DNA from: a virus
Virus record (IMG/VR): IMGVR_UViG_3300042691_016555
Coordinates: 1 to 20,345 of that record
Strand: one strand, 5' to 3'
Length of the DNA stretch: 20,345 nucleotides
In this document: positions 43-18,100 of the stretch, one piece after another
How the letters are laid out: each line of letters opens with the position of its first letter
How positions within the stretch are numbered: the stretch's first letter is position 1
Position numbers and translations under genes: made by a program
Notes under the pieces: model-generated
Databases searched by the model: none
What the model saw: only the letters and a program-made list of their open reading frames with translations
What the model was told of the DNA's origin: nothing

Positions 43-3000
43 ATGGCAGGAATAACAGAATATTATAACAACTTACGCAGCCTAATTCATAATAATCTAC
101 AGGTTCCTGTTTATAGTGAAAGCACGTTTGAGAATCAGAATGTAGAGTTGCCTTGCGTTGTATTTAGTCGTGACAATACCATTGGAACACAAACGATGGA
201 TGGACCAAGTGTAAGATATGAAACGGTTACATTTGATTGTAAGGCCAAGACAATAGAAAAAGCAGAAGAGATGCGTACATTTATCATATCATTGCTGAAT
301 GGATATGATAGTGAAATACAAATAGTTTTGGACAGCAGCGTAGATGAGTTTGATATTATAACTGGTATATACAGCAGACAAATATCATTCACCGTTACTT
401 GGAATGCTGACATAGAATATGTTCAGCCTGTTATTGGAGCAGGTACAGCAAATCAAGTAGCAATATGGAAAGATAGATATATTCTTACTGGTAGTAATGT
501 AATGACCATTACTGGCAGCAATGTAGATTTTGTAGGCAATGTTACCGTAAGTGGAAGTTTGATAGTTGCTGGTGGATTTGTAGTTGATAATGCTATTTCA
601 GCCAGTTATGCCGCTACAGCCAGTTATGTAGAAGGATTGGTTACAGGCACAGCCAGTTATGCTTTACAAGCACTAACCGCATCATATGTAACTGGATTAC
701 CTGCTACATCTTCTTGGGCGTTCAATGCTCTAACAGCAAGTTATGTAGAAGGCATTCTAAACGGCACAGCCAGTTATGCTAGTTTTGCCAATAGTGCCAG
801 TTATGCAAGCAGTGGTGGCACTATAACAAGTTCGCAGCAGTTGAGCAATAATGGTGGTTTTGCGTTCAACAACACAAACAATGTTACTTTTGGACAAATC
901 ACCGCATCAGCAATACAAGTTCAGGTATTGAATGTAGAGATAGTAACAAGCAGCGTATCATTTGTTACAGGAAGTTTGACCGTATCTGGTCCTCTTGTTG
1001 CTAATGGTGGAGTTACAGGAAGTTTAGAAGGAACTGCCAGTTATGCTTTACAGGCTCTTACCGCATCTTTTGCACTAAGTTATAGTGGCACATCAGGCAC
1101 AAGTGGCACCAGTGGAACCAGTGGCACAGCCGGTTCAAGTGGAACCAGTGGCACAAGCGGAACAGATGGCAGCAGCGGAACCAGTGGTCAAAATGGTAGC
1201 AGCGGCACAAGTGGCACCAGCGGAAGCAGTGGGTCAAGTGGAAGCAGTGGTTCATCTGGCACATCTGGAACCAGCGGCAGCAGTGGCAGTAGCGGAACCA
1301 GCGGAGAAGACGGTTCAAGCGGCAGCAGCGGAACCAGTGGAACCAGTGGTTCATCTGGAACAAGTGGTCAAGATGGAACGAGTGGCACAAGCGGTACCAG
1401 TGGTCTAAATGGAAGTATATATAATGGTAATTCTACCACAACTTTAGCAATCACAGGTTCTGGAACAATAAACTTAGTTGTAGAAACTGGATTAGCATAT
1501 ACAATAACACAAGATATTACTATAGTATATGACCTTAGTAATTGGATGGATGGTACAATATCATCTTATAATCCATCTACAGGAGATTTGAGTGTTGTTA
1601 TTTACGCAAGTTCAGGTTCTGGAACATATAGTGTTTGGCAGACAAACCTCAACGGAGCAGTTGGTGCTGCTGGCTCAAGTGGAACCAGCGGCAGCAGTGG
1701 CACATCTGGAGCAAATGGTAGTAGCGGAACCAGCGGTGAAAATGGCAGCAGTGGAACCAGTGGCTCAAGCGGAACAAGCGGAAGCAGTGGAACATCTGGT
1801 GAAACTGGAACAAGTGGTTCTAGTGGCAGCAGCGGCACATCTGGTCAAAACGGCAGCAGTGGCACCAGCGGAGAAAGTGGAACCAGCGGGTCAAGTGGAA
1901 CAAGTGGTCTTACAGGCTCAAGTGGAACCAGCGGTGTAAATGGCTCAAGTGGCACAAGTGGTGCAAACGGAAGCAGTGGAACGTCTGGTCAAAATGGCTC
2001 AAGCGGAACTTCTGGTGAAAGTGGAACCAGTGGTTCTAGCGGAACAAGCGGTCTTACAGGTTCAAGTGGCACCAGTGGTCTTACTGGCTCAAGCGGCACA
2101 AGTGGTGTAAATGGAACATCTGGCACAAGTGGAGAAAATGGTTCAAGTGGAACCAGTGGTCAGAATGGCAGCAGTGGCACATCGGGTGAAAGTGGAACCA
2201 GTGGTTCTAGTGGAAGTAGTGGCACCAGCGGTCTTACTGGCTCAAGTGGCACCAGTGGCGTAAATGGTACATCTGGAACATCTGGTGAAAATGGTTCAAG
2301 CGGCACATCTGGTCAAAATGGAACAAGCGGAAGTAGTGGCACCAGCGGAGCAAATGGAGCCAATGGCAGCAGCGGCACAAGCGGAACAAGTGGCACAACT
2401 CCAACCAGCATAGATTGGAATAATATTACTGGTATAACAAACACCAGCCAGTTTGCTGGTACAGCAAGTTATGCCATCACCGCAAGTTATGCCCTAAATG
2501 GTGGTAGTGGTGGCACAGCAACAACCGCAAGTTATTTGCTGGGTAATGCAAGCAGTTCTTATATTCAGTTTGCTGAGACAGTAAATGCTACAGATGCCGT
2601 GGCACAACTAACTTGGAACAGCGACCTTGGAACGCTAAAACTTGGATTGCGTGGAGGAAATGTAAATCTTCCAATCGGCTTTGAGGAAATAGCATATGTA
2701 TATAATGCTGAAGCAACCGCACTAAGCAAAGGAGAAGTTGTATATGCTTCTGGTTCAGCAACAGATAAAGTTGCTGTAAAAAGAGCCAACTCTTCAGCAG
2801 ATGCTACATCAGCACGCACATTTGGTATTGTATTAGAAAGTATAAATGCCGCTGAAACTGGATATGTAAGTACTCGCGGACTAATCAAAGATATAGACAC
2901 ATCAATGTATAATGAAGGTGATGTTCTATATGTTTCTACATCTTCTGGACAACTAACAAACATAAAGCCACAAGCACCAATCCATCTTGTATATGCCGGT

Positions 3001-4560
3001 ATAGTAACAAGAGTAGGTGTTGGCAATGGCAGCATATTCACTCTTATACAGAATGGTTATGAACTTGATGAACTACACGATGTTAGAATAGTATCTCCAG
3101 TAGATGGTCAAATCATTGTAAAAAGTGGTTCATTGTGGATAAACAGCAATGAAGTCAATATTACTGGTAGTGTTCTTGGCACAGCAAGTTATAGCATAAA
3201 CTCTGCTACATCTTCTATATCAAGAAATGTGATTGGATTGGAAGGAGAACCAGTCAATATTACAGCGACTGATAATAGCGTACAAATAAACTCAACATAT
3301 GATATTATTCTTACTCCACTTAGTGATGTCACGATTGGTGGCTCTGGAGAGTTATATGTCGGTAGCCAGATAGATTTACTGGGAACAGATGGTACTATAA
3401 ATGCAGTCACATTGAATGCTGATAAGGCAAGTATTCCAAGCATTACAGGTTCATTACTTGGCACAGCAAGTTTTTCTAATGATACAAAGTTTATTTCATT
3501 TGCGAGTTCTTCTGTTTATATGGGAGAAAGCAACAAAATATCAACTGGTGCATCAAATGTAATGATTGGAATAAGTAGCTCGGCAGCAATAACCACTGCT
3601 AATAATACCATACATATTGGACCATCTGCTGGTAGGGCTATAACAACTGGTATTAGCAATGTACTTATCGGAAGCCTTACAGGAGCATCAATAACAGATA
3701 GTAGTAATAATACAATAGTTGGTAATGGAGCACTAAGATTTGCGACAGGTGGAACCCAAAATACAACACTTGGTAGATTTACACTTAGAAACTTACCATC
3801 TGGGTCAAATAATATTGCGATAGGAGCTTCTGCTGCAACTGGTTCAGTTGCTCACGATGACTCAATAGCAATAGGAACAAACGCACAAATATTAGCAGGA
3901 GCATCAAATGCTATTATCATCGGCACAAACTCAGTATCATCTGGAAGTAATAGTATAGTAATCGGTACAGCAACTCATACAAAAACGCATATATTTGGAA
4001 GATTACATACAGCAGATATTGAGGCAAAAACGATTACTGCGTCTTTACAGGGAACATCAAGTTATGCGATGATGGCACTAACTGCTTCGTATGCACTAAA
4101 TGCTGGTTCTGGTGGTAGTTCTACATCCGCAAGTTATGTATCTGGCTCTGGAGTATATGCCACGAATGGTATTATAACAACATTTACTTCTAGTTATGCC
4201 AACTTGACATATATTACAGCAAGCGAAATGTATGCGGCAGGAACAAATATATTTGGTGATAGTTCGTCCGATGTTCATAGATTTATAGGCACAGTACAAG
4301 CAACTGGTTCTGTTATTATAACAGGCTCACTTAGTGTAATAGGACCAATAACTGGAACGGCATCATATTCTACAACAGCAAGTTACAGTATAACTTCCAC
4401 TACGGCGAGTTATAGTGTAAATGCTACATCAGCAAGTTATAGTATAAATGCTACATCGGCATCATTTGCTACTACTGCTTCATACGCATTGAATGCCGCA
4501 TCAAGCCCAACAGTTTCTGGTATAACAATACAAGATGTATGGATGTATAGCGGTTTGTAA
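43..4560 (+). CDS. Tail-terminator-like (DUF3168-type) domain fused to a giant fibre
   Basis: This 1505-residue protein is modular. Residues 1-125 resemble the DUF3168 tail completion/terminator family: a PVY segment near the start, a conserved P-C-V-V-F strand, a helix with EKAEEMRTFI, and a closing strand YSRQISFTVTW. Residues 185-345 are TASY-type beta repeats. Residues 349-457 and 541-786 are Gly-X-Y tracts separated by a compact beta domain (458-540). About 845-1030 is a globular domain of a kind found in phage fibres (KGEVVYASG, NEGDVLYVS). About 1148-1322 are YadA/Hep_Hag-like head repeats (NNTIVGNGAL, SNNIAIG), followed by more TASY repeats. No C-terminal autochaperone is recognisable. 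Such repeats are usually trimeric and adhesive. The upstream sequence lacks a clear Shine-Dalgarno, and the start sits in a CATATG context. The N-terminal assignment is from sequence resemblance only; the fibre part is much surer. Confidence 0.85.
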   Translation: MAGITEYYNNLRSLIHNNLQVPVYSESTFENQNVELPCVVFSRDNTIGTQTMDGPSVRYETVTFDCKAKTIEKAEEMRTFIISLLNGYDSEIQIVLDSSVDEFDIITGIYSRQISFTVTWNADIEYVQPVIGAGTANQVAIWKDRYILTGSNVMTITGSNVDFVGNVTVSGSLIVAGGFVVDNAISASYAATASYVEGLVTGTASYALQALTASYVTGLPATSSWAFNALTASYVEGILNGTASYASFANSASYASSGGTITSSQQLSNNGGFAFNNTNNVTFGQITASAIQVQVLNVEIVTSSVSFVTGSLTVSGPLVANGGVTGSLEGTASYALQALTASFALSYSGTSGTSGTSGTSGTAGSSGTSGTSGTDGSSGTSGQNGSSGTSGTSGSSGSSGSSGSSGTSGTSGSSGSSGTSGEDGSSGSSGTSGTSGSSGTSGQDGTSGTSGTSGLNGSIYNGNSTTTLAITGSGTINLVVETGLAYTITQDITIVYDLSNWMDGTISSYNPSTGDLSVVIYASSGSGTYSVWQTNLNGAVGAAGSSGTSGSSGTSGANGSSGTSGENGSSGTSGSSGTSGSSGTSGETGTSGSSGSSGTSGQNGSSGTSGESGTSGSSGTSGLTGSSGTSGVNGSSGTSGANGSSGTSGQNGSSGTSGESGTSGSSGTSGLTGSSGTSGLTGSSGTSGVNGTSGTSGENGSSGTSGQNGSSGTSGESGTSGSSGSSGTSGLTGSSGTSGVNGTSGTSGENGSSGTSGQNGTSGSSGTSGANGANGSSGTSGTSGTTPTSIDWNNITGITNTSQFAGTASYAITASYALNGGSGGTATTASYLLGNASSSYIQFAETVNATDAVAQLTWNSDLGTLKLGLRGGNVNLPIGFEEIAYVYNAEATALSKGEVVYASGSATDKVAVKRANSSADATSARTFGIVLESINAAETGYVSTRGLIKDIDTSMYNEGDVLYVSTSSGQLTNIKPQAPIHLVYAGIVTRVGVGNGSIFTLIQNGYELDELHDVRIVSPVDGQIIVKSGSLWINSNEVNITGSVLGTASYSINSATSSISRNVIGLEGEPVNITATDNSVQINSTYDIILTPLSDVTIGGSGELYVGSQIDLLGTDGTINAVTLNADKASIPSITGSLLGTASFSNDTKFISFASSSVYMGESNKISTGASNVMIGISSSAAITTANNTIHIGPSAGRAITTGISNVLIGSLTGASITDSSNNTIVGNGALRFATGGTQNTTLGRFTLRNLPSGSNNIAIGASAATGSVAHDDSIAIGTNAQILAGASNAIIIGTNSVSSGSNSIVIGTATHTKTHIFGRLHTADIEAKTITASLQGTSSYAMMALTASYALNAGSGGSSTSASYVSGSGVYATNGIITTFTSSYANLTYITASEMYAAGTNIFGDSSSDVHRFIGTVQATGSVIITGSLSVIGPITGTASYSTTASYSITSTTASYSVNATSASYSINATSASFATTASYALNAASSPTVSGITIQDVWMYSGL
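1087..1413 (+). repeat. Gly-X-Y (GTSG/GSSG) tract 1 of the fibre gene
   Basis: About 36 consecutive Gly-X-Y triplets, mostly GTS and GSS with occasional GQN, GED and GQD, and no proline. The protein repeat is near perfect but synonymous codons vary widely, so the DNA repeat is imperfect. Such tracts form extended trimeric stalks, either collagen-like or polyglycine-II-like. Confidence 0.9.
1663..2400 (+). repeat. Gly-X-Y (GTSG/GSSG) tract 2 of the fibre gene
   Basis: About 82 Gly-X-Y triplets. A loose higher-order period of GSSGTSG followed by GEN, GQN, GES, GLT, GVN or GAN recurs many times. No proline or lysine is seen. Several sub-blocks (GES-GTS-GSS-GTS-GLT) recur within the tract, suggesting internal duplication and scope for length change by recombination. 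Confidence 0.9.
3484..4008 (+). repeat. YadA/Hep_Hag-like head repeats in the fibre
   Basis: The encoded segment carries repeats of about 14-25 residues with alternating small and hydrophobic positions, such as NNTIHIGPSAG, SNVLIGSLTG, NNTIVGNGAL, NNIAIGASA and SNSIVIGT. This is the pattern of the left-handed beta-roll head of trimeric autotransporter adhesins, also common in phage fibres. Confidence 0.75.
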
Positions 4561-4590: not shown

Positions 4591-4959
4591 ATGGCATACA
4601 CAGATATAAAACAACTAGCAAGTCAAATACTACACGCCACAGAAAGTATTGTATATACGGCCCCAACAAGCAAGTCCGTAGAAATAGGCAATATGTGGTT
4701 TTACAACTATACTGGCACGGTTCAGTCGGTTCAGGTATATTTTCCATTTACTGCCACAGTTCCTACAGCCAGTTTTAGTGCTTCTTTTGCCATACAAAGA
4801 TTGAGTGAAGGCATTAGCGGTTCTGCTGTGCTTGAGTTGGCACCAAAAGTTCCGTTTGTATTGAACAGTGTAACTGGCTCTCATAGTGAAAAAATAACAA
4901 TGAAATGTTCGCAAACAGCATCTATCAATGTTGTAATATATGGCAGAGAACAGACATAA
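4591..4959 (+). CDS. Small beta-rich virion-type protein
   Basis: 122 residues, strongly predicted to be all-beta. The pattern of an early YTAPTSKSV strand, a W-F-Y-N-Y-T-G strand, a central acidic segment and a final VVIYGRE strand resembles small phage structural proteins whose N-terminal motif is L-Y-T-A-P and whose C-terminus is a short beta strand ending in G-x-E. These are usually encoded near tail or fibre genes and are thought to be virion components. A recognisable RBS (AGGATAA) lies about 8 bases upstream, and the gene follows the giant fibre by 30 bases, consistent with co-transcription. The exact location in the particle cannot be told from sequence. Confidence 0.8.
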   Translation: MAYTDIKQLASQILHATESIVYTAPTSKSVEIGNMWFYNYTGTVQSVQVYFPFTATVPTASFSASFAIQRLSEGISGSAVLELAPKVPFVLNSVTGSHSEKITMKCSQTASINVVIYGREQT

Positions 4960-4962
4960 TAT

Positions 4963-5955
4963 ATGCTACGCAGTACAAAATATCCACGACTAGGTAATAA
5001 ACTTGGATTGTCATATAAAAGTGTCAATCCAGTTGTAATAAGTGCTGCACCAGCAACTCCTACTTGGTATGGCACAAATACAAAAGGATTTAGTATAGGT
5101 GGAGCCGGTGGTGGAAATGTCGCAGATAAAGCAACATTCAGCACAGAAACAACTGCTGCACAAACATCAGCAAATCTAACAGCGGGTAGAGCACAAATAT
5201 CCAGCGGAGGAAATGATACTCAGGCATATTATATTGGTGGAACAGATGCATCAGACGTTTCACAAACAAGTGCCAATAAACTTACGCACAGCAATGATAC
5301 AATGGCATCAAATACTTCTGCCGCATTACCTGCTGCTCGTTCTGGTATTCTTGCTGCCGTATATACTACAGCAAATTATAGTTATGGTGGTTCTGCTGGT
5401 GCAAACTCTAATGACCAATCCGCAGCATACAAAACCACATATAGCAATGACACGACTGCGGCACAAACTTCTGCCAATCTTGCCACAGGCAGAGCAAGCG
5501 GTATGACATTGAGTTCTGATACGGCTGCTATGTATTTTGGTGGATTTAGAAACGTACCGAGTGGATTTACTCAGCAAACTATTGCCGATAAAATGCCTTT
5601 TAGCACAGAAACTAGTGCAAATAATACATCACTTGCTTTGCCTACGGCAAGAGCATATGGAAATTATGGTTCTATCAATAGCACACTAAATACTAAAGGG
5701 TATTTGTCGGCATCAAATACTACAAATACTTTTACAAAAGTAACATATAGCACAGATACTGCCAGTAACCTGGCGGCTACAGGTATTCAACAAGGCTCTG
5801 GTATGAGTAGTACAACCATTGGATATACTCTTGGAGGCTATACAACCACGCAGGTTGTAACTGCTTATAAATTCACGGTATCAAGTGAAACTTCCGCAAC
5901 AATATCCGCAATGAACAAAAGCGTAGCAAAATCACAATCAGCAGGATGTTGCTGA
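4963..5955 (+). CDS. Kelch-like beta-propeller protein, copy 1
   Basis: 330 residues containing about six blades of some 50 residues. Each blade has a di-glycine or equivalent core strand: FSIGG near residue 42, YYIGG near 88, YSYGG near 139, MYFGG near 190, KGYLS near 245 and GYTLGG near 287. Between these, a recurring K-x-x-(F/Y)S-x-(D/E)T element is followed by a patch ending in (L)(P/T)-x-(A/G)R. The Kelch-type GG signature suggests a beta-propeller, probably a receptor- or glycan-binding or decorating virion protein. It starts three bases after the preceding stop. It is paralogous to the gene at 6752-7702, with the same order of blade types. No signal peptide or enzymatic motif is apparent. 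The fold is well supported; the function is inferred. Confidence 0.8.
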   Translation: MLRSTKYPRLGNKLGLSYKSVNPVVISAAPATPTWYGTNTKGFSIGGAGGGNVADKATFSTETTAAQTSANLTAGRAQISSGGNDTQAYYIGGTDASDVSQTSANKLTHSNDTMASNTSAALPAARSGILAAVYTTANYSYGGSAGANSNDQSAAYKTTYSNDTTAAQTSANLATGRASGMTLSSDTAAMYFGGFRNVPSGFTQQTIADKMPFSTETSANNTSLALPTARAYGNYGSINSTLNTKGYLSASNTTNTFTKVTYSTDTASNLAATGIQQGSGMSSTTIGYTLGGYTTTQVVTAYKFTVSSETSATISAMNKSVAKSQSAGCC

Positions 5956-6751: not shown

Positions 6752-7702
6752 ATGTTTATTACTCTAAAAAGAACATATATCCAATCTTTTTATTGGTATG
6801 GAAACAATATCAAAAGTTTTAGTATGGGTGGAACTACCGGACCTGTTGTAACTACAGATAAACTAAACTATTCTACGGATGCTATTACTGCACTAACCAG
6901 TGCAAACTTGCCAGCAGCAAGAGCACAGCAAACTTCTGGCGGAGGAAGATATTGGGGATATGCGATAGGAGGCATTGATACTACAGATACTAGCCAAACT
7001 AGTGCGGCAAAAATAACATATAGCAACGATGTAAATTCATCTAACGCCAGTGCGGCATTGCCAGCCGCAAGGTCTTCTATCAAAGGAGCATCATATTATA
7101 CAGCATTATATAGTTATGGCGGAAATAGTGCAACCAACTCAAATGACCAAACTGCGGCTTACAAAACCGTTCTAAGTAATGATACTACATCAACAGTAAG
7201 TTCTGCTGATTTGACCACTGGTCGTTCTAATGGTGGAACTGCAAGTTCCGACTCATTTTCTGTATTTCTTGGAGGATTTAGAAATACTTTTACTACATTT
7301 GTAAGCCAAACATTGGCTGATAAAATGCCATTTGCCACAGAAACAACAGCAAATAATACATCATTGGCATTGCCAGTAGCAAGAGGATGGAACTCTTATG
7401 GAAGCATAAATGGCCCTATTACATCACGAGGATATTTGACTGGAACTGCGGGAACATATAATATCCAAACTTGGATGAGAATAAACTATAGCACAGATAC
7501 TTGTACAAATCTTAGTGCTGCATATGATGTAGTAATAAGTCAAGCATCTGGGCATAGTAGTCAAACTGCTGGATATAGTTTAGGTGGATACTCTGCTACG
7601 CAAGTATCAAATGCATATAAACTAACATTTTCCAATGATACTCTAAATACCAATATTGATTTCAAGACAATAGCAAAAGGTCAATGTTGTGGCGTTGGAT
7701 AA
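6752..7702 (+). CDS. Kelch-like beta-propeller protein, copy 2
   Basis: 316 residues, paralogous over its whole length to the 4963-5955 product but lacking the first 20 or so residues of that protein. Blade core strands appear in the same order: FSMGG near residue 23, YAIGG near 70, YSYGG near 120, VFLGG near 171, RGYL near 227 and GYSLGG near 274. Shared inter-blade elements include ADKMPF-(S/A)TET and NNTSLALP-x-AR. The C-terminus ends in a cysteine-rich CCGVG, against SAGCC in copy 1. The gene begins three bases after the previous stop. Duplication followed by divergence fits two receptor-binding or decoration proteins of different specificity; a heteromeric assembly is also possible. Confidence 0.8.
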   Translation: MFITLKRTYIQSFYWYGNNIKSFSMGGTTGPVVTTDKLNYSTDAITALTSANLPAARAQQTSGGGRYWGYAIGGIDTTDTSQTSAAKITYSNDVNSSNASAALPAARSSIKGASYYTALYSYGGNSATNSNDQTAAYKTVLSNDTTSTVSSADLTTGRSNGGTASSDSFSVFLGGFRNTFTTFVSQTLADKMPFATETTANNTSLALPVARGWNSYGSINGPITSRGYLTGTAGTYNIQTWMRINYSTDTCTNLSAAYDVVISQASGHSSQTAGYSLGGYSATQVSNAYKLTFSNDTLNTNIDFKTIAKGQCCGVG

Positions 7703-8768: not shown

Positions 8769-9371
8769 TTACTTTTTCTGTTTTTTTATTTGTCGCAACA
8801 AATGATTTATTTCAAGTGATAATGCTTTCATCTTCTTGGCACTATCTTCTGAGTAATCTGTGTTCATATACATATAATCCAGTTTCATACGATTTATTAC
8901 GCATTTTGTGCGTATCTCATTTTCATCTACCCAGCAATGCTTGTTTCGGTTGCTTTTCTTTTCTACTATCTGGATGTTATAGTATTTGTATGCGAATGGC
9001 TTTAGATGTTTGTTCTCTGGCTTGTTGAACCAACTGGCTGGCACTATATGGTCAATCTCGTGCGTCTTTAGCATTTCCTTGAACTCTACTTCAGTGGTAT
9101 TCATATTCACAAAAAACTGCTCTTTTGTCATACCAAGGCTGCTTACTACCATCGCACTATATTTCCATTGTCCAAGAAGATATGCTCGTAATGCTATACG
9201 CATTCTTGCTTCGCCATACTTTATCGGGTCTTTACGCATCTTGCGTTGATAGTCCCGATTATATTGTTTTACATAATCCTTGTTGTTGCTTCTCCACTTC
9301 TTGATATATGGAGCATAGCGTTTATAGGAGTCCGATAATGTGCCCTCTGGGCGTTCTACGTTGTTTGTCAT
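8769..9371 (-). CDS. HNH homing-type endonuclease
   Basis: 200 residues. The nuclease core is at about residues 110-155: HEIDHIVPASWF supplies the His and the Asp-His pair, and a later YYNIQIVEKKSNRNKH segment supplies the conserved Asn, followed by a final basic/His element. This is the beta-beta-alpha-metal fold of HNH nucleases, which cut DNA with a single divalent cation. The N-terminal part (YKRYAPYIKKWRSNNK, then YVKQYNRDYQRKMRK) is a basic helical region common in phage HNH proteins. It is encoded opposite to the structural genes and is isolated by hairpin terminators at each end, as expected for a free-standing homing endonuclease. No broken host gene or intron boundary is visible around it. 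No clear Shine-Dalgarno precedes the start. Confidence 0.85.
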   Translation of the reverse strand: MTNNVERPEGTLSDSYKRYAPYIKKWRSNNKDYVKQYNRDYQRKMRKDPIKYGEARMRIALRAYLLGQWKYSAMVVSSLGMTKEQFFVNMNTTEVEFKEMLKTHEIDHIVPASWFNKPENKHLKPFAYKYYNIQIVEKKSNRNKHCWVDENEIRTKCVINRMKLDYMYMNTDYSEDSAKKMKALSLEINHLLRQIKKQKK

Positions 9372-9679: not shown

Positions 9680-10105
9680 ATGCCATCGCCAGCAATCTAT
9701 AGCAAAACAACACTCGCAGTAGCAACCAGTTCTGCTGGAGTACCAACACTAATCTCAGGTGTCACCAACGTTGGTGGTCCTAACTTTACCCGTCCTGAAA
9801 TTGATATTACCACGATGGAAAGCGTTGCCAAGGAATACAAGCCAGCAGCACTAACCGATACTGGTATATTGACCTTCGGCCTACAATATAATCCAGCAAA
9901 CGCTGTGCACGCTTATATCGTATCTCAGTCCGCCAACAATACACCGGGCAACGACATCTTCAAGATTACCTTTAGTGATGCGACTGACTGGAACTTCACT
10001 GGTTCCTTTACTGAGTTCAGCATTACTGCTGATGACCCATCCCAAGGCATCTTGACCGCAAACGTCTCGGTTCGCCTATCTGGAGCAGTCAATTTCAACC
10101 CATAA
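9680..10105 (+). CDS. Major tail tube protein
   Basis: 141 residues. The pattern is that of small siphovirus tail tube proteins (lambda gpV N-domain / TP901-1 type). It has an early beta strand around LISGVTNVGGPNF and the key IDITTMESVAKEY element (the usual E-I-x-x-T-x-x-x-x-x-x-K-E). This is followed by LTDTGILTFGLQYNP, FKITFSDATDWNF and FTGSFTEFSITADD strands, and a closing SVRLSGAVNF strand. Hexameric rings of this protein stack around the tape measure. Codon choice differs from neighbouring genes, with more ACC, GTC, TTC, GAC and CGC, as expected for a very highly expressed gene. It has its own RBS and terminator, so it is probably a monocistronic or strongly boosted unit. The chaperone and tape measure genes downstream support the call. 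Confidence 0.85.
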   Translation: MPSPAIYSKTTLAVATSSAGVPTLISGVTNVGGPNFTRPEIDITTMESVAKEYKPAALTDTGILTFGLQYNPANAVHAYIVSQSANNTPGNDIFKITFSDATDWNFTGSFTEFSITADDPSQGILTANVSVRLSGAVNFNP

Positions 10106-10215: not shown

Positions 10216-10455
10216 ATGAGTTTTACAGGTAAAAAGCATAGCGAGGAGACCAAACGCAAGATAAGTTTGTCGCGTAAGAAATATACTGGCAAAAATCATC
10301 CAAGATATGGTGCTGAATGGACTGATGAGCAGCGAGCCAAATATATACTAACTATGCATCATATTCGCCAAGAAGAAAATCGTATAAAGATGTTTCTGAT
10401 AAAATATGATGGTTTATACCGCAAATTTCAGGATGAACAAAAAAAGAAAGAATAA
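10216..10455 (+). CDS. Small NUMOD3-type DNA-binding protein
   Basis: 79 residues. The N-terminus, FTGKKHSEETKRKISLSRK, matches the NUMOD3 motif (G-K-x-H-S-E-E-T-K-x-K-I-S) found in the DNA-binding region of GIY-YIG and HNH homing endonucleases. A second partial copy (TGKNHPRYGAEWTDEQR) follows. No catalytic domain is present in the frame or upstream, so it is either a remnant of a homing endonuclease or an independent minor-groove DNA-binding protein. It lies between the tube gene terminator and the tail chaperones; the next gene starts four bases after its stop, so it is part of their operon and perhaps just carried along. Confidence 0.75.
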   Translation: MSFTGKKHSEETKRKISLSRKKYTGKNHPRYGAEWTDEQRAKYILTMHHIRQEENRIKMFLIKYDGLYRKFQDEQKKKE

Positions 10456-10458
10456 ATT

Positions 10459-10683
10459 ATGTTTGATAAAATAAGCCTAAAGTCAATGTGCCATTATGAA
10501 AAACTAACTGGCAAAAACGCAATGGAACTATTCCAAAAAGAAGGCAAGTCCGCAACAGATTTGCGTGATATTGTATTCCTGCTGAAATATACCAAGGATA
10601 CTACAGCCACGTTTGATACTATTGAGAATATGTCTGCTGAAGAGTTCCAAGCAACTCTTAGCACCATAGGCGATGAAAAGTAA
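10459..10683 (+). CDS. Tail assembly chaperone, upstream partner (G-like)
   Basis: 74 residues. The segment KSATDLRDIVFLLKYTKD resembles the helix-rich core of siphovirus tail assembly chaperones (D-L-R-D-hydrophobic-x-x-L). Its place between the tube and tape measure genes, overlapping a second small gene out of frame, is the standard arrangement of the G/GT pair. Such proteins coat the tape measure and recruit tube subunits during assembly and are not in the finished virion. The last 11 bases overlap the next start; a frameshift fusion may also be made. Position is the strongest evidence. Confidence 0.7.
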   Translation: MFDKISLKSMCHYEKLTGKNAMELFQKEGKSATDLRDIVFLLKYTKDTTATFDTIENMSAEEFQATLSTIGDEK

Positions 10684-10996
10684 TATAAGTGCCCACGATA
10701 TTGTCGCATTTGCCATAGTAGAACTAAATGTGCCAATATCATTGGATGTCTTATATTCAATGAGTCCAAACGATAAACTTTACAAGGCTCTTATTGAGGC
10801 TTGGAAAGCAAAGGAAAAAAGGGCAGACGCCAGAACTGCCCTTTTATGTGCTGTTATGGCAAACTGTATGGGTAGTGGTAAAAAGAAGTATGAGCCAAGT
10901 GATTTTATGCCAAAAGAACCCAAGAGTATTCAAGACAAAGAGGCAGCAATAAAATCAAACTTTATGGCGTATATGGCACAGCGTAAAGGTAAATAA
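10673..10996 (+). CDS. Tail assembly chaperone, downstream partner (T-like)
   Basis: 107 residues. The segment RADARTALLCAVMANCMGSG, then KKKYEPSDFMPKEPK, has the layout of the second tail chaperone of many siphoviruses: an alanine-rich helix with A-N, a basic loop, then a D-F-x-P motif. The ATG lies inside the end of the preceding gene (ATGAAAAGTAA) in the +1 (equivalently -2) frame. Translation could restart there by coupling. A frameshift would have to happen in a window of only about 14 bases, because a stop codon in this frame lies at 10667-10669. With its partner it likely escorts the tape measure protein. Confidence 0.7.
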   Translation: MKSNISAHDIVAFAIVELNVPISLDVLYSMSPNDKLYKALIEAWKAKEKRADARTALLCAVMANCMGSGKKKYEPSDFMPKEPKSIQDKEAAIKSNFMAYMAQRKGK

Positions 10997-11036: not shown

Positions 11037-13514
11037 ATGGCCACCCTAAGTACAGTAGCAGTTGATTTTATCGCCAATGTATCCAAATACATTTCTGGAT
11101 TGACGCGGATGAAGGAAGAGAACAAGAAGTTCTCTTCTGATACAAAGAAGGAATTCTCCAAAGCAAAAGGTGGCATAGATGATTTTTCTAATGGATTAGG
11201 TGGTGGGCTAAAAGGACTGCGACTATTCGGTGCTGCATTAGGAGGTATTGGACTGGCAAGTTTTGCCAGAGATGTGCTAAATACGGCGGAAAAAATAGGA
11301 GATTTATCCGACCAACTTAGCATAAGTGGTGTAAGTTTGCAGAAGTTACAAGGTATTTTTGCCAAAAGTGGTGCCAGTGTAGATGATGTAGTTGCTTCAA
11401 TATCAAAGTTAGAAAAAAGTGCTGTAGAAGCGGCAGAAGGAAATAAATCATTAGAACAATCATTTGCCAGATTAGGAATAAATGCTGATAGTTTCAATAA
11501 ACTGAACGCAGATGATAAAGTAGTAGCATTTGCAAAGGCTCTACAAACAATAAAAGACCCTGCTGAAAAAGCATCTTTGGCTCAAGAAATATTAGGAAAA
11601 AGTTCCAGAAAAGTATTACAAGGTTTCAAGGACATAGCAGAAAGTGGTGATATAAATAAGGCTGCAAAAGAGGTAGTTACATTTAGCGATGAAGCAGGAG
11701 CAGCAGTATCAGAATTTGCTGATAACGCAAAATTGGCTTTTGCAAACTTCAACGCGATTGTTATTGAACTGATTGGAAACTTGTTGATTTCCCAAAAAGA
11801 ACTAAAAAAACTACAAGATACAAAAGGACCGGCTGGAATTCCTACAACCGCTGGTGCATTTTTAGGGCAAGGTGGTTTTGGAACAACCAGCAATGTAGCA
11901 GCAGCAGTTGAACAAGCAAGAGGGGCATTTGATAAAACAGATTTACAACTTGCCAGAGAAGAACAAGCATTGTTGCGTGACCGAGCGAAGCAAGATAGAG
12001 AAAGAGCAGCAGCACTGGAACTGCAAGCAGAAGCATTTAGAAAAGTAAGAGATAGTATTCTTGCCACTATTGACCCTGTGGCAAGGTATTCCTCGGAAGT
12101 AGATAAAATAAATGAAGTAGTAAAGAAAAATAAGTTGAGTGAAGAAGATAGGCTCAAACTTATTGCTGGCATTTCACAGGCTTATATATTTGCAGTTGAC
12201 CCGGTCAAAAAATATGCCGCAGAAGTAGCAAAGATAAAAGCGGATAAAGGTTTATCCGAAAAACAAAAGGCTGATAATATAAAACTTCTTGGTGCTGCAT
12301 ATGATGATGCTATTGACCCAGCAAACAGATATAAGAAAATCTTAGAAGATTTGGATGCTCTTGTTGCCAATGGTATAAGAACAGACCAAGAAAGAAGAAC
12401 AGTAATAGATAGTTTAGGTAGTTCATATAGAGCATTATATGACCCGGCAGAAAAATACTTGAAACTACAAAGAGATTTGATTGCTTTACCAAGAGGGTCA
12501 AATGTCAATATATTGGATGTTTTACGCAATAGCAATAAAGAGGTTAGAGATATATTGAGACCATTGGCAGAGTTGGATGACAAACTAAAAGAGTCCAATG
12601 CATATTTTGAGGCATTAGCAAAAACTGAAGTTGCTGTAAGGCAAGAGATATTAGACAACTTTATAAAATCAGGCACATTGACTCAAGGAAGGCTTGAGTT
12701 ATTACAGCAGGAAGTAGATGCAATACGAGCCAAGTATCAGGCAGAGGCAACATTTGCTCAACTAAGTATCAAACAACAAAAGGATGCGATATATCAAAGA
12801 GAACTTGCTATAGCACTAAACGACAAGCAACTTCTTGGTGAAGCACAATATACAGAAGAACTTGTTAGAATAAACAAACTTCTTGCCGCATCCAGAGAGT
12901 CGGAAAAAGGTGCGATGAGATTGGCTCTTACAGACCAGCAGAAAAGGATAATGCTTACTCAGGCAGAAGCAAAAGTATTCTTGACCAGAAATGAAACAAT
13001 AGCACAAGGCTTCCAGTATATGTCAGATTTTGCTGACCAGTTCAGCAGAGCAATAGTAGAAGGACAAAACTTTAGTGATGCTCTAAAAAATGTGTTCAAG
13101 AGTATTCTAAAAGATATTACTGTATTGATACTACGCACAGCAATACTAAGAGGTCTTATGGCAGCAATAGGCTTTATAAATCCAGTTGCTGGTGCCGCAT
13201 TTGGAACAATGGTAGGATTACCGCCCGGCAGAGCAAGTGGTGGTCCAGTTATGGCAGGTATGCCATATACCGTAGGAGAACAAGGACCAGAAATGTTTGT
13301 TCCAAGAGAAAATGGATATATCGTTCCTAATGATATGATGCCGGGTGAGTCAATGAATGTAACGCAGAACATATATATAGAAACTGGTGTATCACAAACC
13401 GTAAGAGCAGAAATGGTGTCGTTGCTGCCAAAGTTCAGACAAGAAGCAATCGCATCTGTATTGGATGCCAAACTGCGTGGCGGTTCATATGCCAAAGGAT
13501 TAGTAGCAGCCTAA
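11037..13514 (+). CDS. Tape measure protein
   Basis: 825 residues, by length and composition a lambda-H-type tape measure: long, helical, alanine- and lysine-rich. An N-terminal hydrophobic segment (LRLFGAALGGIGLASFA, near 60-77) is followed by GDLSDQLSISGVSLQKLQGI, a block common in the family. A hydrophobic C-terminal segment lies around 697-735. The C-terminus has the characteristic GRASGGPVMAG, YTVGEQGPEMFVP and later NVTQNIYIETG motifs. Four degenerate repeats lie at residues 346-480. It fixes tail length and is ejected at infection; at about 0.15 nm per residue it predicts a tail near 120-125 nm. No lytic peptidase or transglycosylase domain is apparent. It has no Shine-Dalgarno and the same CATATG start context as several other genes here. 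Confidence 0.92.
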   Translation: MATLSTVAVDFIANVSKYISGLTRMKEENKKFSSDTKKEFSKAKGGIDDFSNGLGGGLKGLRLFGAALGGIGLASFARDVLNTAEKIGDLSDQLSISGVSLQKLQGIFAKSGASVDDVVASISKLEKSAVEAAEGNKSLEQSFARLGINADSFNKLNADDKVVAFAKALQTIKDPAEKASLAQEILGKSSRKVLQGFKDIAESGDINKAAKEVVTFSDEAGAAVSEFADNAKLAFANFNAIVIELIGNLLISQKELKKLQDTKGPAGIPTTAGAFLGQGGFGTTSNVAAAVEQARGAFDKTDLQLAREEQALLRDRAKQDRERAAALELQAEAFRKVRDSILATIDPVARYSSEVDKINEVVKKNKLSEEDRLKLIAGISQAYIFAVDPVKKYAAEVAKIKADKGLSEKQKADNIKLLGAAYDDAIDPANRYKKILEDLDALVANGIRTDQERRTVIDSLGSSYRALYDPAEKYLKLQRDLIALPRGSNVNILDVLRNSNKEVRDILRPLAELDDKLKESNAYFEALAKTEVAVRQEILDNFIKSGTLTQGRLELLQQEVDAIRAKYQAEATFAQLSIKQQKDAIYQRELAIALNDKQLLGEAQYTEELVRINKLLAASRESEKGAMRLALTDQQKRIMLTQAEAKVFLTRNETIAQGFQYMSDFADQFSRAIVEGQNFSDALKNVFKSILKDITVLILRTAILRGLMAAIGFINPVAGAAFGTMVGLPPGRASGGPVMAGMPYTVGEQGPEMFVPRENGYIVPNDMMPGESMNVTQNIYIETGVSQTVRAEMVSLLPKFRQEAIASVLDAKLRGGSYAKGLVAA
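12072..12480 (+). repeat. Four 39-42-residue repeats within the tape measure
   Basis: D-P-x-x-(R/K)-Y motifs begin at bases 12072, 12198, 12315 and 12441 (residues 346, 388, 427 and 469): DPVARY, DPVKKY, DPANRY, DPAEKY. Each of the first three is followed by a helix (E/K-V-x-K-I or K-I-L-E-D-L), a short loop and a second helix ending in G-x-(A/S)-Y or similar. Spacing is 42, 39 and 42 residues. Confidence 0.8.
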
Positions 13515-13527
13515 AATACAAAATCAT

Positions 13528-14082
13528 ATGCCAACATATCCCATCAATTATCCAACAAATAGTAGGCTACAGCCAAGAAATATAGAATTTACTAGTCGTA
13601 CATTGACCACAAGATTTCAGTCGCCATTTACTGGCAAGACACAGATATATCGTTATGGTGGTCAATGGTGGGAACTAAATGTAACATTGGCTCCATTATT
13701 CCAAAGTGATGCTGAAGAACTAACTGGGTTCTTGAATGCTTTGACTGGGGCAGGAGACCAGTTTGGAACATTTTATTTTCCATTGCCGAGCAAGTTTCTT
13801 ATATCATCTACGGTTAGTATAACAACTACATCAACAGGCAATGATTTTACTGTAAGCAGTGGAACCGTACAAGTAGGCAAGTTTGGTTATGACAGCACAA
13901 GCAACAGGCTGGTACAATTTACAACTGCGACATCATTGTTTCCTAAACTAAATCCAAGCACAGCATATAGCATCAATACAACATCAAAAGCAAAAATGCG
14001 ACTAGTCAATAGTGATATAACATATACTGTTGATGAGTTTATGCTGACTAACGTAACAATACCAATGATTGAAGCAATATGA
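13528..14082 (+). CDS. Distal-tail/hub-type minor tail protein
   Basis: 184 residues. The segment FQSPFTGKTQIYRYGGQWWE followed by a strand, a helix ADAEELTGFLNAL-like region and FGTFYFPLP is the core of a minor tail protein family found directly after tape measure genes and before DUF2163-type hub genes. An insert of about 65 beta-rich, Thr/Ser-rich residues (90-155) precedes the final MLTNVTIPMIEAI strand. Position equals that of the distal tail protein slot in lambda-like phages and gene transfer agents. It likely forms a ring between the tube and hub. The stop overlaps the next start (ATGA). Confidence 0.75.
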   Translation: MPTYPINYPTNSRLQPRNIEFTSRTLTTRFQSPFTGKTQIYRYGGQWWELNVTLAPLFQSDAEELTGFLNALTGAGDQFGTFYFPLPSKFLISSTVSITTTSTGNDFTVSSGTVQVGKFGYDSTSNRLVQFTTATSLFPKLNPSTAYSINTTSKAKMRLVNSDITYTVDEFMLTNVTIPMIEAI

Positions 14083-14723
14083 GCAGAAGCGGAATATCAT
14101 CAACATATGTTAGTAGTTCTGTAACGCTTATTCAGCCATATTTGGCTGCGTATATGGATTTTAGCGGCAGTGCTGTTAGATTATGGACTGGTACATATTC
14201 ACAGAGTTTCAATGATGATTTTGGCAATGGAACATATATTGGTGTAGGAACTCTTGGCACAATATCTACCGTTACAGAAGCAACTGAAGTAGCAGCCAAA
14301 GGAATGGACCTTACACTTAGCGGAATACCTACAGAATATGTAAGCCTTGCTCTTAGCAACAACTATAGAGGTCGTGAAGTAGCAGTATATCTTATTTTAT
14401 ACAATACTGGTATGACTGCGTATGAACAAGTAACATTGTTCCGTGGCAGAATGGACCAGATGACTATTCAAGAGTCCAAGGATTTGAGCAGCATTGTTAT
14501 AAAATGCGAAAATAGGCTCATTGACTTGAATAGACAAAAGGATATAAGATATACCGACGAAGCACAGCAAATCATATCACCGGGCGATAAAGGACTTGAG
14601 TTTGTAAGTTCTATGGCAGACAAAAGCATTTACTGGGGCACAAGTGCTCCGGGTAGTTCAGCCAATACTGGCGGCGGCGAAAATGGTGAAGGTGGCGACG
14701 GCACAAACATAGGAGGTAGTTGA
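14079..14723 (+). CDS. Tail hub protein (DUF2163-like)
   Basis: 214 residues. Recognisable family blocks in order: YLAAYMDFSGSAVRLWTG, a YIGVGTLGTISTVTEATE strand pair, MDLTLSGIPTEYVSLAL, GREVAVYLILYNT, then LFRGRMDQMTIQESKD, ENRLIDLNRQKDIRYTDEAQ and PGDKGLEFVSSMADK with a final YWG. These are seen in phage and gene transfer agent hub proteins upstream of cell-wall peptidase genes. It is predicted to form the central ring of the tail tip. A glycine-rich flexible tail of some 25 residues closes the protein. It is coupled to both neighbours by ATGA- and TGATG-type overlaps. Confidence 0.85.
   Translation: MSRSGISSTYVSSSVTLIQPYLAAYMDFSGSAVRLWTGTYSQSFNDDFGNGTYIGVGTLGTISTVTEATEVAAKGMDLTLSGIPTEYVSLALSNNYRGREVAVYLILYNTGMTAYEQVTLFRGRMDQMTIQESKDLSSIVIKCENRLIDLNRQKDIRYTDEAQQIISPGDKGLEFVSSMADKSIYWGTSAPGSSANTGGGENGEGGDGTNIGGS
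14711..14716 (+). promoter_or_regulatory. Strong RBS that fixes the start of the DUF6950-like gene
   Basis: AGGAGG is six bases ahead of the ATG at 14723 (spacing measured to the A). It favours this ATG over the in-frame TTG at 14720. Confidence 0.8.
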
Positions 14724-15100
14724 TGTATATAGACAACACATTTTATCATAAACTGCAAGAACTGCATATGCAGGAGTTTGATTGGAAGAACAACAACTGC
14801 GGCTTTTTTGTTGGGAAGATGCTACAGTTTATGTACAAGAAGGATTTTCTAAAAGATTTTGCTGATAAATGCACAGACGAAAAAACATCATTTGATTTGA
14901 TACAAGCAAAAGGAGGCTGGCATAAAGTATTGACTGATGCTGGTCTGGTAAAAAGAAAAGATAATGCCATATATGTTGGTGATGTTGTATTGTGTGAAAA
15001 TGCCATTGGTATATATGATGGCACAAAAGCATTGTTTGCTGGTGGAGCATTTCGCAGAAAAACAGCAATAACATCAGCGTATTATTACAAGGAGAATTGA
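14723..15100 (+). CDS. DUF6950 / NlpC-P60-like tail peptidase
   Basis: 125 residues. The fold signature is an N-terminal helix with FDWKNNNCGFFVGKML (Cys at residue 26 in the position of the catalytic cysteine), a GGWHKVL segment, the NAIYVGDVVLCE strand that contains the usual G-D-V-V, and a later IGIYDG strand. Proteins of this kind occupy the GTA gp14 / lambda gpK position and are thought to trim peptidoglycan during DNA entry. The residue before the Cys is Asn, where most relatives have Asp, and a clear catalytic His cannot be assigned, so the protein may be only structural. It overlaps the preceding stop by one base (TGATG). Confidence 0.75.
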   Translation: MYIDNTFYHKLQELHMQEFDWKNNNCGFFVGKMLQFMYKKDFLKDFADKCTDEKTSFDLIQAKGGWHKVLTDAGLVKRKDNAIYVGDVVLCENAIGIYDGTKALFAGGAFRRKTAITSAYYYKEN

Positions 15101-15103
15101 TTT

Positions 15104-18100
15104 ATGCCACAACTAGTAGCCGTAGCAATACTTGAAATCTGGGGAGCATTGGTAGTATCAATGCCACTATGGGCACCTACTGCTGCCACATATGCGGCAT
15201 ATGCCATTGTTGCTGCGGGAACATATGCTTCCATTCGCAGTATGCAGAAAATACCAAACCTTGGTAATCTTCAAGCGGATGCTGCTGGTAAAGTATCAAT
15301 GACCCGTGATACAGTTGCGTCTCGCAGAGTCATATATGGTATGGCAAGGGTGTCTGGGCCTGTGGTATTTGCCAGCACCAATAGTTCTGGAACTTCTGGT
15401 AAGAACGAGTTTTTACATATGATTGTTGCCCTTGCTGGGCACGAAGTTACTGAGTTCAAGTCCATTTTCTTCAATGATGTTCAGGCGTGGGATAGTGGCA
15501 GCGGACAAAGTGCATTATTTCCAGCAGATAAACTGGCAATGACATACAAGATTGGTGCTGCTTCACAAACAGCATATGATATGACGCCGCCAACAGAATG
15601 GACGAGCGACCATAGGCTAAACAGCATTGCTTCTGTATATGTTCGTCTAACGGCTGACCCGAACACATATCCAAATGGTATTCCAAATATATCAGCCACG
15701 ATTGTTGGTCATCAACTACAAGATGAAAATGGCAACAATGTAAATTATTACGATAATCCAGCACTTATACTACGCCATTATCTTCTAAACTATTTTGGTG
15801 CTGATACTACTGAAATAGATGCTACAAGTTTTGGCATTGCCAAAGATGCCTGCAACTATGAGCCATATGGTGCTGGCACAGGCAAAAGATATACCTGTAA
15901 CTATACATTTACGCTGAATACCAAGCCAGCAAAAGTCATAGAAGATATACTAAAGACGTGCTATGGCAAACTGGTATATACCAATGGTAAGTTTGTAATA
16001 AAGGCTGGTGTATATAATACGCCAACCGTATATCTAAATGAAGATGACCTGATTGGTGGCATCAATGTAACCACAAAATCAAGTCAAGCCAATGCATTCA
16101 ACAGCGTTCGTGGCTTGTTTATAGATGGCAATACATACACCAGCAGTTTCCAAGCATCTGATTTTGTTCCTATAACCAGCAGTTTTTATCTAAATGAAGA
16201 TGACAACTTTGATAATCCAATAGACATTGAACTATCTGGTGTTACAGACCATACAATCGCAAGACGTATTGCCAAACTAACATTGCTGGATAGTCGTCAG
16301 GATTTGAGCGTACAATGTACAACCAAAATAAGCGGCCTACAACTTATTGCTGGTGATAATGTTTATCTATCCGTAGCAAGATATGGATGGGTAAATAAAG
16401 TATTTGAGGTCAATGAACTTACTATAAACTCGGACCTAAGCATTGGATTATTGCTCAAGGAAACCAGTTCGGATATATATGATTTTCCTGTTAGTGAAGA
16501 CGTAGATAGAGACCTAAGTCCAAATACAAATCTACCTAACCCATTTATTGTACAGCCTCCAGTTGGATTTAGTGTTACAGAAACTACAACAGTTGATGCT
16601 GATGGTACTGTATTTCCAAGTGCCACACTAAACTGGAGTGCTTCTTATAGCGGCAGCATATCGGATATATCAGTAGAATATAAAGAAACAAGTTCTGCTG
16701 ATTTTGATGCTCTTGGCATATTTCCACGCACAGACAGCACATTTACTACATTGGATGTTGTGGCGGGCAAGACATATATGTTCCGTGCCAGAAACTTGAA
16801 CTATCTTGGTGTGTTCAGTTCTTATGTAAGCAAAAGCCTAAAGATAAATGGCGATAATACCGCACCACAAACTCCTACTGGCATAACAGCCACGGGTGGC
16901 ACAGGAAGTTTTTCACTAAACTGGACAAATCCTGCTGTAGATACAGATTATAAATTCACGCGGATTTGGCTGAATACTGCCAATAACTTTAGTACATCAA
17001 CTGTTCAGGGTACTATATCTGGCACTACTTGGAACAAGACAATCACTTCAAGCAGCACATATTATGCTTGGCTACAAAATATAGATACAAGCAACAATAC
17101 ATCCAGTGTAAGCAGTCAGGTAAATGCTGCTGTTTTTGCTCTTGGAACTGGTGATGCTGGTCCAAGCGGTAGTGCTGGTAATATACAATATCAGATATAT
17201 CGCAGAAGTGCTACACCTCCTGCTACACCAACAGGTAATCTTACACCAGCATTCTGGAGCACAAGCATACCTGCCGATGATGGTAATGCTTTATGGGTGT
17301 CGGTTGGACTTATCTCTGGTGGCGATGGCATAACTCTTATTGGCTCTTGGAGCACACCAGAAAGATTGACTGGCAAAGTATCTTGGTACCAAACAACTGC
17401 TCCTACTGGTGCTACGACAGCATCTATCAGCATTGGTGATTTATGGTGGGATACTGATGACAACTATAAGCCATATCGTTGGAATGGAACAACTTGGCAA
17501 GCAGTTGATGATGGACGCATTACTCCTATCAGCCAATCTGTTGTAAATTATGGTGATAAATATGCTCTAACGGTAACAACAACTGGAACGCCAAGAGTTG
17601 CTGGCTTTAGAATAATGAATGAAGCAACTGCTCCAAGCGAGTTTGTTGTTCAGGCAGATGTATTCAAGATTTATAGCACAAGTGATGGCACAATAACACA
17701 ATCATTTACTGCTGATGCCAATGGTGTATATATGCCACAGGCTCTTATTCGTGAGTTGGATGCTGGTAAGATTACAGCAGGTACAATCAATGCCACCGTC
17801 AAAATGACTGCGGCCAAACTTGAGTCACCTGAAATAACTGGTTCTGGTATTATGATAAACAGCCAGAATGGTATGAGATACCAAGATAATAATGGAAACT
17901 TTATTATAACTGGTGGTGAGCAGAATGGTGAAAATAATGGTGCTCAGATTGACCTTGTTGGTGTTGGTGGAGGTGTTGGTCCCGGTGGAAGAGGTGTATT
18001 GGTACTAAGTGCTGGTAATGTTGGCACAACACTTGGTGATGGTGAAATAAGATTTAGAACAGCAGCGAATGAAAAAGGAGCACTGAAACGTGATGGTACA

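What the first reader, a model, noticed from the sequence alone, without database searches (positions are those of the whole stretch)
43..4560. Tail-terminator-like domain fused to a 1,380-residue trimeric-type fibre
The first 125 residues resemble the DUF3168 tail completion/terminator family, and the gene lies upstream of the tube gene, where the terminator belongs. The remainder is an extended adhesive fibre. Terminator proteins are normally 120-150 residues and form a ring at the head-proximal end of the tail. If the fusion works as both, the phage would carry long collar fibres at its neck, with Gly-X-Y stalks and YadA-like tips. A six-fold ring bearing fibres that usually trimerise would also pose a symmetry question (two trimers per ring).
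Basis: partly seen in the sequence, partly recalled or inferred. Interest (0 to 1): 0.7.

Follow-up and report, generated by a model that had tools for sequence, protein, structure and literature searches.

The report
Tail-terminator protein carrying a long neck fibre
In a group of uncultured siphovirus-like phages, the small protein that caps the top of the tail is fused to a very long collagen-stalked fibre, and some relatives appear to have no other tail cap, so an essential joint of the virus probably doubles as a fibre holder.

Summary
ORF 43-4560 is a 1,505-aa protein whose first ~124 residues are followed by a collagen-stalked modular fibre. The terminator reading is strongly supported. 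The AlphaFold model of residues 1-142 matches solved tail terminators: all 50 VIA rows are terminator or cap-type proteins (lambda gpU, RcGTA and T5 p142 at Z 11.7-12.3). Relatives hit PHROG_347 'tail terminator'. The gene sits after adaptor, head-closure and Neck1 genes and before the tube gene.

A contig identical to the window over 5,217 bp (L002) has a separate 118-aa terminator paralogue directly upstream. In G014, covered from terminase through the tail-tip genes, the fusion is the only terminator detectable; G005 and G018 carry two fusions each and no stand-alone copy. Fused and stand-alone copies form two clades (support 100/100), and stand-alone presence is patchy on the capsid tree. 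The fused domain is under strong purifying selection.

Best reading: a terminator subunit that also anchors neck fibres, beside a plain terminator in the window's phage and as sole candidate terminator in G014-type phages. Ring stoichiometry and virion position are inferred, not shown.

The parts
43..414 (+). Tail-terminator-fold domain (residues 1-124) of the fusion
   Evidence: AF2 pLDDT 79 and pTM 0.72 for residues 1-142; Foldseek/VIA against PDB return tail terminators; PHROG_347 hits in 7 of 15 family members, best 2.5e-5, though not in the window copy itself
415..1086 (+). Linker and beta/T-A-S-Y repeat shaft (residues ~125-348); the start of it is conserved across fusions
   Evidence: blastp: window 73% identical over a 218-aa stretch to the G018 fusion; motif counts
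1087..1419 (+). Collagen-like stalk 1, 37 Gly-X-Y triplets (residues 349-459)
   Evidence: Pfam PF01391
1654..2400 (+). Collagen-like stalk 2, 83 Gly-X-Y triplets (residues 538-786)
   Evidence: Pfam PF01391
2509..3060 (+). Shared fibre domain (residues ~823-1006)
   Evidence: tblastn to proteins annotated as tail fibre or fibritin in cultured phages, E down to 7e-20
3556..3972 (+). NxxIG repeat region (YadA-head-like motif only)
   Evidence: sequence inspection; no Pfam support
3973..4560 (+). C-terminal T-A-S-Y repeats ending QDVWMYSGL
4591..4959 (+). 122-aa small beta-sandwich protein, usually close downstream of the fusion; fibre or decoration partner suspected
   Evidence: alignment A3; AF2 pLDDT 69; weak jelly-roll matches such as KHP30 cement protein and HFTV1 turret, Z 7.5, below the reliable range
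9680..10105 (+). Major tail (tube) protein, downstream partner of a terminator
   Evidence: PHROG_158 E 5e-14; PF16460 2e-6
10673..10996 (+). Tail assembly chaperone-like (Phage_tail_T)
   Evidence: PF06223 1.9e-10
11037..13514 (+). Probable tape measure protein (825 aa)
   Evidence: size and position; no significant family hit
13528..15100 (+). Distal tail, hub and peptidase-position genes, lambda/RcGTA-like order (no sheath gene recognised)
   Evidence: PHROG_1302, 2048, 2134

Best explanation
The protein is a tail-terminator subunit with a long adhesive fibre grown onto its C-terminus. The N-terminal domain (shown: predicted terminator fold) joins the hexameric ring that caps the tail tube under the head (inferred). 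Its C-terminus exits outward, as in E217, and carries a ~100-nm collagen-stalked modular fibre at the neck (inferred), probably for reversible host binding. In phages such as G014 the fusion is the only detectable terminator and so must also end tube growth (inferred by elimination). In the window's phage a plain 118-aa paralogue is encoded directly upstream, so the cap is probably a mixed or stacked set of plain and fibre-bearing subunits, which would relax the six-versus-three symmetry problem (inferred).
For: Fold: AF2 model; Foldseek top hits are phage terminators; all 50 VIA rows are terminator or cap-type proteins, Z up to 12.4, e.g. RcGTA 12.3 (119 aligned, 3.0 A), lambda gpU 11.7 (120 aligned, 3.0 A), T5 p142 11.7 (123 aligned, 2.6 A). 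Sequence: PHROG_347 tail terminator hits 7 of 15 members, best 2.5e-5; the G014 fusion domain 7e-4. Synteny: Ad1 (PHROG_40), head closure (PF05521/PHROG_25), Neck1 (PHROG_5), then terminator or fusion, then tube. Elimination: no further family copy in G005, G014, G018 by profile search of all six frames without filters. Constraint: fused domain dN/dS 0.04-0.17 where dS is measurable, tighter than the stand-alone copy (0.20-0.26); mean identity 79% among fused versus 63% among stand-alone copies. Geometry: in phage E217 six terminator C-terminal extensions extend outward to the sheath (PMC10329688).
Against: The window's own phage has a plain terminator gene upstream (L002), so the fused copy need not terminate the tail there. 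No contig is a proven complete genome. Oligomeric state, virion position and tube termination are untested. A six-subunit ring can bear at most two trimeric fibres, and how collagen triple helices would form from ring-bound chains is unclear. Pfam terminator models do not score significantly.
Confidence: 0.65

Rival explanations
1. The plain paralogue is the true terminator in phages that have both. The fused copy uses a terminator-fold domain only as a docking module, as a second ring or a neighbour of the ring, to hold a neck fibre.
For: In L002, L003, L004, L014, L017, L020, L021 and L061 a stand-alone copy precedes the fusion; the two copies form separate clades 100/100 with 40-53% identity, consistent with split roles.
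Against: Fusion-only phages have nothing else detectable to terminate the tail, and their fused domain belongs to the same clade as the fused copies of the paired phages; the fused domain is not relaxed in selection.
Confidence: 0.22
2. The domain has the terminator fold but the protein is mounted elsewhere, for example at the tail tip, and acts as an ordinary side tail fibre.
For: In T5 the tail completion protein p143 is not at the proximal end and is placed with the distal baseplate hub (PMC11784142), so neck-type genes can act elsewhere; the fibre's middle domain matches proteins annotated as tail fibres.
Against: Closest solved matches are proximal terminators; gene position is exactly the terminator slot, not the tail-tip cluster; no other terminator in G014.
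Confidence: 0.07
3. The fusion does not stay one chain: internal initiation or proteolysis separates a terminator from a free fibre.
For: It would remove the symmetry problem; there is no experimental evidence for it.
Against: No in-frame internal ATG with a Shine-Dalgarno-like motif was found between codons 115 and 260 (the scan assumes Shine-Dalgarno use, which the host may lack); the reading frame is unbroken across the junction in the homologues examined.
Confidence: 0.06

Closest known systems
Siphophage tail terminators (lambda gpU, SPP1 gp17, T5 p142, RcGTA terminator)
   Same: Fold of residues 1-124, gene slot between Neck1 and tube genes
   Different: Known ones are short caps (about 120-160 aa); here about 350-1,650 further residues of fibre follow
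Extended myophage/CIS terminators (T4 gp15, E217 gp29, Staphylococcus phage 812, PVC16)
   Same: Terminator with additional C-terminal or inserted domains; in E217 the C-terminus extends outward (PMC10329688); larger terminators with extra domains are noted in PMC11784142
   Different: Described additions bind or cap the sheath; none in the papers read carries an adhesive fibre
Lactococcal neck passage structure (TP901-1 and 936 group NPS)
   Same: Adhesive fibres at the phage neck with variable C-terminal binding modules
   Different: NPS N-terminus is BppU-like, modelled as an 18-mer collar, encoded apart from the terminator and non-essential (PMC6669499, PMC4493119)
T4 fibritin whiskers and XM1 gp40 collar spikes
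   Same: Fibres or spikes around the neck; the window fibre shares a domain with proteins annotated fibritin in Synechococcus phages S-CRES1/2
   Different: Separate collar proteins, not fused to the terminator (PMC10491603)

Membership tests
Phage tail terminator (gpU-like, PHROG_347) | Terminator fold (helix - strands - helix - strands) | tested here: met
Phage tail terminator (gpU-like, PHROG_347) | Significant match to a curated terminator profile | tested here: inconclusive
   PHROG_347 hits 7 of 15 family members, best 2.5e-5; the window copy itself has none; Pfam Phage_tail_terminator_6 only 0.06 in two members
Phage tail terminator (gpU-like, PHROG_347) | Gene lies between Neck1/head-closure genes and the tube gene | tested here: met
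   order met, but ~5 kb of other genes lies before the tube gene
Phage tail terminator (gpU-like, PHROG_347) | Hexameric ring that caps the tube and stops its growth | not testable with these tools
   single-chain structure prediction only
Pfam DUF3168 | Match to the Pfam model | tested here: not met
   no such match at E<=10 among 15 members; does not argue against the fold
Collagen-like phage fibre (PF01391) | Long uninterrupted Gly-X-Y repeats | tested here: met
   120 triplets in two blocks; E 6e-50
YadA-like head repeats | Match to a YadA head model | tested here: not met
   only motif resemblance; no Pfam hit at E<=1
Lactococcal neck passage structure | BppU-like N-terminal beta-sandwich | tested here: inconclusive
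   N-domain matches terminators instead; BppU not compared directly
Lactococcal neck passage structure | Fibre located at the virion neck | not testable with these tools
   needs electron microscopy

The most novel reading that the evidence does not exclude
In fusion-only phages (G014 type) every subunit of the essential tail-capping ring carries a ~90-nm collagen-stalked adhesin, so tail termination and host-binding fibres are one protein. Phages of the window type mix plain and fibre-bearing subunits, so ring composition sets how many fibres the neck carries.
Probability: 0.45. Interest if true: 0.75.

Novelty: new variant of a known kind. Interest (0 to 1): 0.6.

Why it matters
Neck fibres are otherwise known to be held by dedicated collar proteins. 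Here the structural cap itself seems to have become the fibre anchor, after a duplication of the terminator and repeated loss of (or exchange around) the plain copy. It gives natural comparison sets (plain plus fused, fused only, two fused) for asking how six-fold rings carry three-stranded fibres and how many copies are needed. It also adds a neck-anchored site to the places where siphoviruses may display variable adhesins.

Tried and rejected
Assembly artefact: rejected, the same junction is present in about 20 contigs. Pfam, NCBIfam and sequence-only PDB searches of the N-domain gave nothing useful (the WRAP beta-propeller hits cover 32 residues and are taken as spurious). No convincing homologue in cultured phages by tblastn. 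No prophage or host found in two genome scans. The PHROG_347 six-frame search of whole records missed even the known copies, so its absence there is uninformative; a family-specific profile was used instead. The tube-gene scan and single-sequence Neck1 and capsid scans added little; the capsid-alignment scan added L061, another paired phage, and no phage with only a plain copy. The structure of the downstream 122-aa protein gave no firm identity. Literature searches in the open-access library for terminator-fibre fusions found none; most subscription papers were not searchable.

Full report
WHAT IS THERE. The window is a 20,345-bp virus record holding the tail half of a siphovirus-like structural module. 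ORF 43-4560 (+) encodes 1,505 aa. Pfam and PHROG see only its collagen-like stalks and related fibre profiles: two Gly-X-Y blocks at residues 349-459 and 538-786, 120 triplets without proline, 79% Ser/Thr at X and Y. At the textbook rise of 0.286 nm per residue this is about 100 nm of stalk. The 825-aa putative tape measure would set a tail of about 120 nm (0.15 nm per residue, general knowledge), so a neck-anchored fibre could reach close to the tail tip. This is an inference, and stalk length varies from 0 to about 130 nm among relatives.

THE N-TERMINAL DOMAIN IS A TERMINATOR FOLD. Sequence models do not recognise the window copy, but an alignment of fused and plain relatives (A2) gave an AlphaFold model with pLDDT 79 and pTM 0.72. 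Foldseek against the PDB returned phiXacJX1, lambda gpU, T5 p142, T4 gp15, Mu, RcGTA and R4C terminators. VIA-align gave Z up to 12.4, with all 50 listed rows being terminator or cap-type proteins. Many BFVD hits are named tail completion, DUF3168 or tail terminator proteins. Seven of 15 family members also hit PHROG_347 'tail terminator', best 2.5e-5.

GENE NEIGHBOURHOOD. The window starts 42 bases before the gene, so relatives were needed. Searches with the N-domain gave 21 viral loci. Upstream order is terminase, portal, protease, capsid (these four by position and size), adaptor Ad1 (PHROG_40, PF05135), head closure (PF05521; PHROG_25), Neck1 (PHROG_5), then the terminator slot. The tube gene (PHROG_158), a Phage_tail_T-type chaperone, the probable tape measure, and distal-tail, hub, peptidase and gpJ-like genes follow downstream. 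No sheath gene was recognised, so this looks like a siphovirus with a lambda/RcGTA-like tail tip.

THREE STATES OF THE TERMINATOR SLOT. (a) Plain 118-123-aa terminator directly followed by the fusion: L002, L003, L004, L014, L017, L020, L021, L061; L018 and L022 end just after the plain copy. (b) One fusion and no plain copy: L005, L009, L010, L011, L012, L013, L015, L016 (several of these contigs are short at the 3' side, so a second fusion beyond the end is possible). (c) Two fusions and no plain copy: L006 and L019; L007 and L008 are shorter near-copies of L006. G014 (L015's record, 28,996 bp, terminase through the tail-tip genes) has only the one fusion. A family profile run without filters on all six frames of G005, G014 and G018 found no further copy, and PHROG scans of the genes around the G014 fusion found no other terminator. 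None of these records is proven complete.

HISTORY AND CONSTRAINT. Fused and plain copies form two clades with support 100/100, so they are paralogues, and a single fusion event is enough for the sampled set. On a capsid-protein tree the presence of the plain copy needs about four changes (bootstrap range 3-5; well-supported branches alone force two to three), which suggests repeated loss of the plain copy or exchange of the neck cassette. Several branches are poorly resolved. A capsid-based search, not chosen for fusions, found no phage with a plain copy only. The fused domain averages 79% identity versus 63% among plain copies, and its dN/dS is 0.04-0.17 where dS could be estimated, against 0.20-0.26 for plain copies (dS is near saturation, so these are rough). 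The fused domain is thus under at least as much constraint as the plain one, which argues against it being a decaying tag.

THE FIBRE. Behind a conserved N-terminal region the fibre is modular and variable: T-A-S-Y repeats, collagen stalks of different length, a 184-aa domain shared with annotated tail fibre and fibritin proteins of cultured phages, and several unrelated C-terminal ends. A 122-aa small beta-sandwich protein is encoded close downstream in many relatives; its structural matches are weak.

MECHANISM. Shown: predicted fold, synteny, paralogy, fusion-only relatives. Inferred: ring assembly at the top of the tube, outward C-termini, neck fibres. The outward direction is supported by phage E217, where six terminator C-terminal extensions extend outward to recruit the sheath (PMC10329688). 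A terminator ring sitting on a trimeric tube ring has C3/pseudo-C6 symmetry in T5 (PMC11784142), so three-fold fibres on a six-subunit cap are not absurd. Mixed rings in state (a) and two fused forms in state (c) could reduce or partition the fibres, but nothing here tests stoichiometry.

COMPARISON. Terminators with extra domains are known (PMC11784142), and neck fibres are known (T4 whiskers, XM1 spikes, lactococcal NPS; PMC10491603, PMC6669499, PMC4493119). In the papers read the two are separate proteins; the NPS N-terminus is BppU-like. I found no description of a terminator fused to an adhesive fibre, within an open-access library only. The finding is best called a new variant of a known kind.

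Noticed in passing
window 15104-19450: The gpJ-like tail-tip protein (1,448 aa) has its own C-terminal collagen-like stalks (residues 1106-1408) of the same G-T-S-G type as the fusion.
   Followed up: partly
window 4963-5955 and 6752-7702: Two related kelch-like repeat proteins in the variable block between the fusion and the tube gene; both match the same relatives' genes.
   Followed up: partly
window 10216-10455 and 8769-9371 (-); L064 5970-6599; L019 6683-7168 (-): Small homing-endonuclease-like ORFs sit at several spots in the neck and tail genes; in L019 and L064 one lies at the start of the head-closure gene and seems to shorten it. Not checked with family models.
   Followed up: no
L010:1724-5213: The fusion reading frame breaks after 971 aa and seems to continue in another frame (4818-5213): sequencing error or a real frameshift.
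   Followed up: no
L067:1609-3205: An IS200/IS605-like TnpA/TnpB pair appears inserted between the capsid and adaptor genes of a distant relative (judged by eye).
   Followed up: no
BFVD A0A516LX71 (rank 17): A 641-aa viral protein matches the terminator model, possibly an independent terminator fusion.
   Followed up: no
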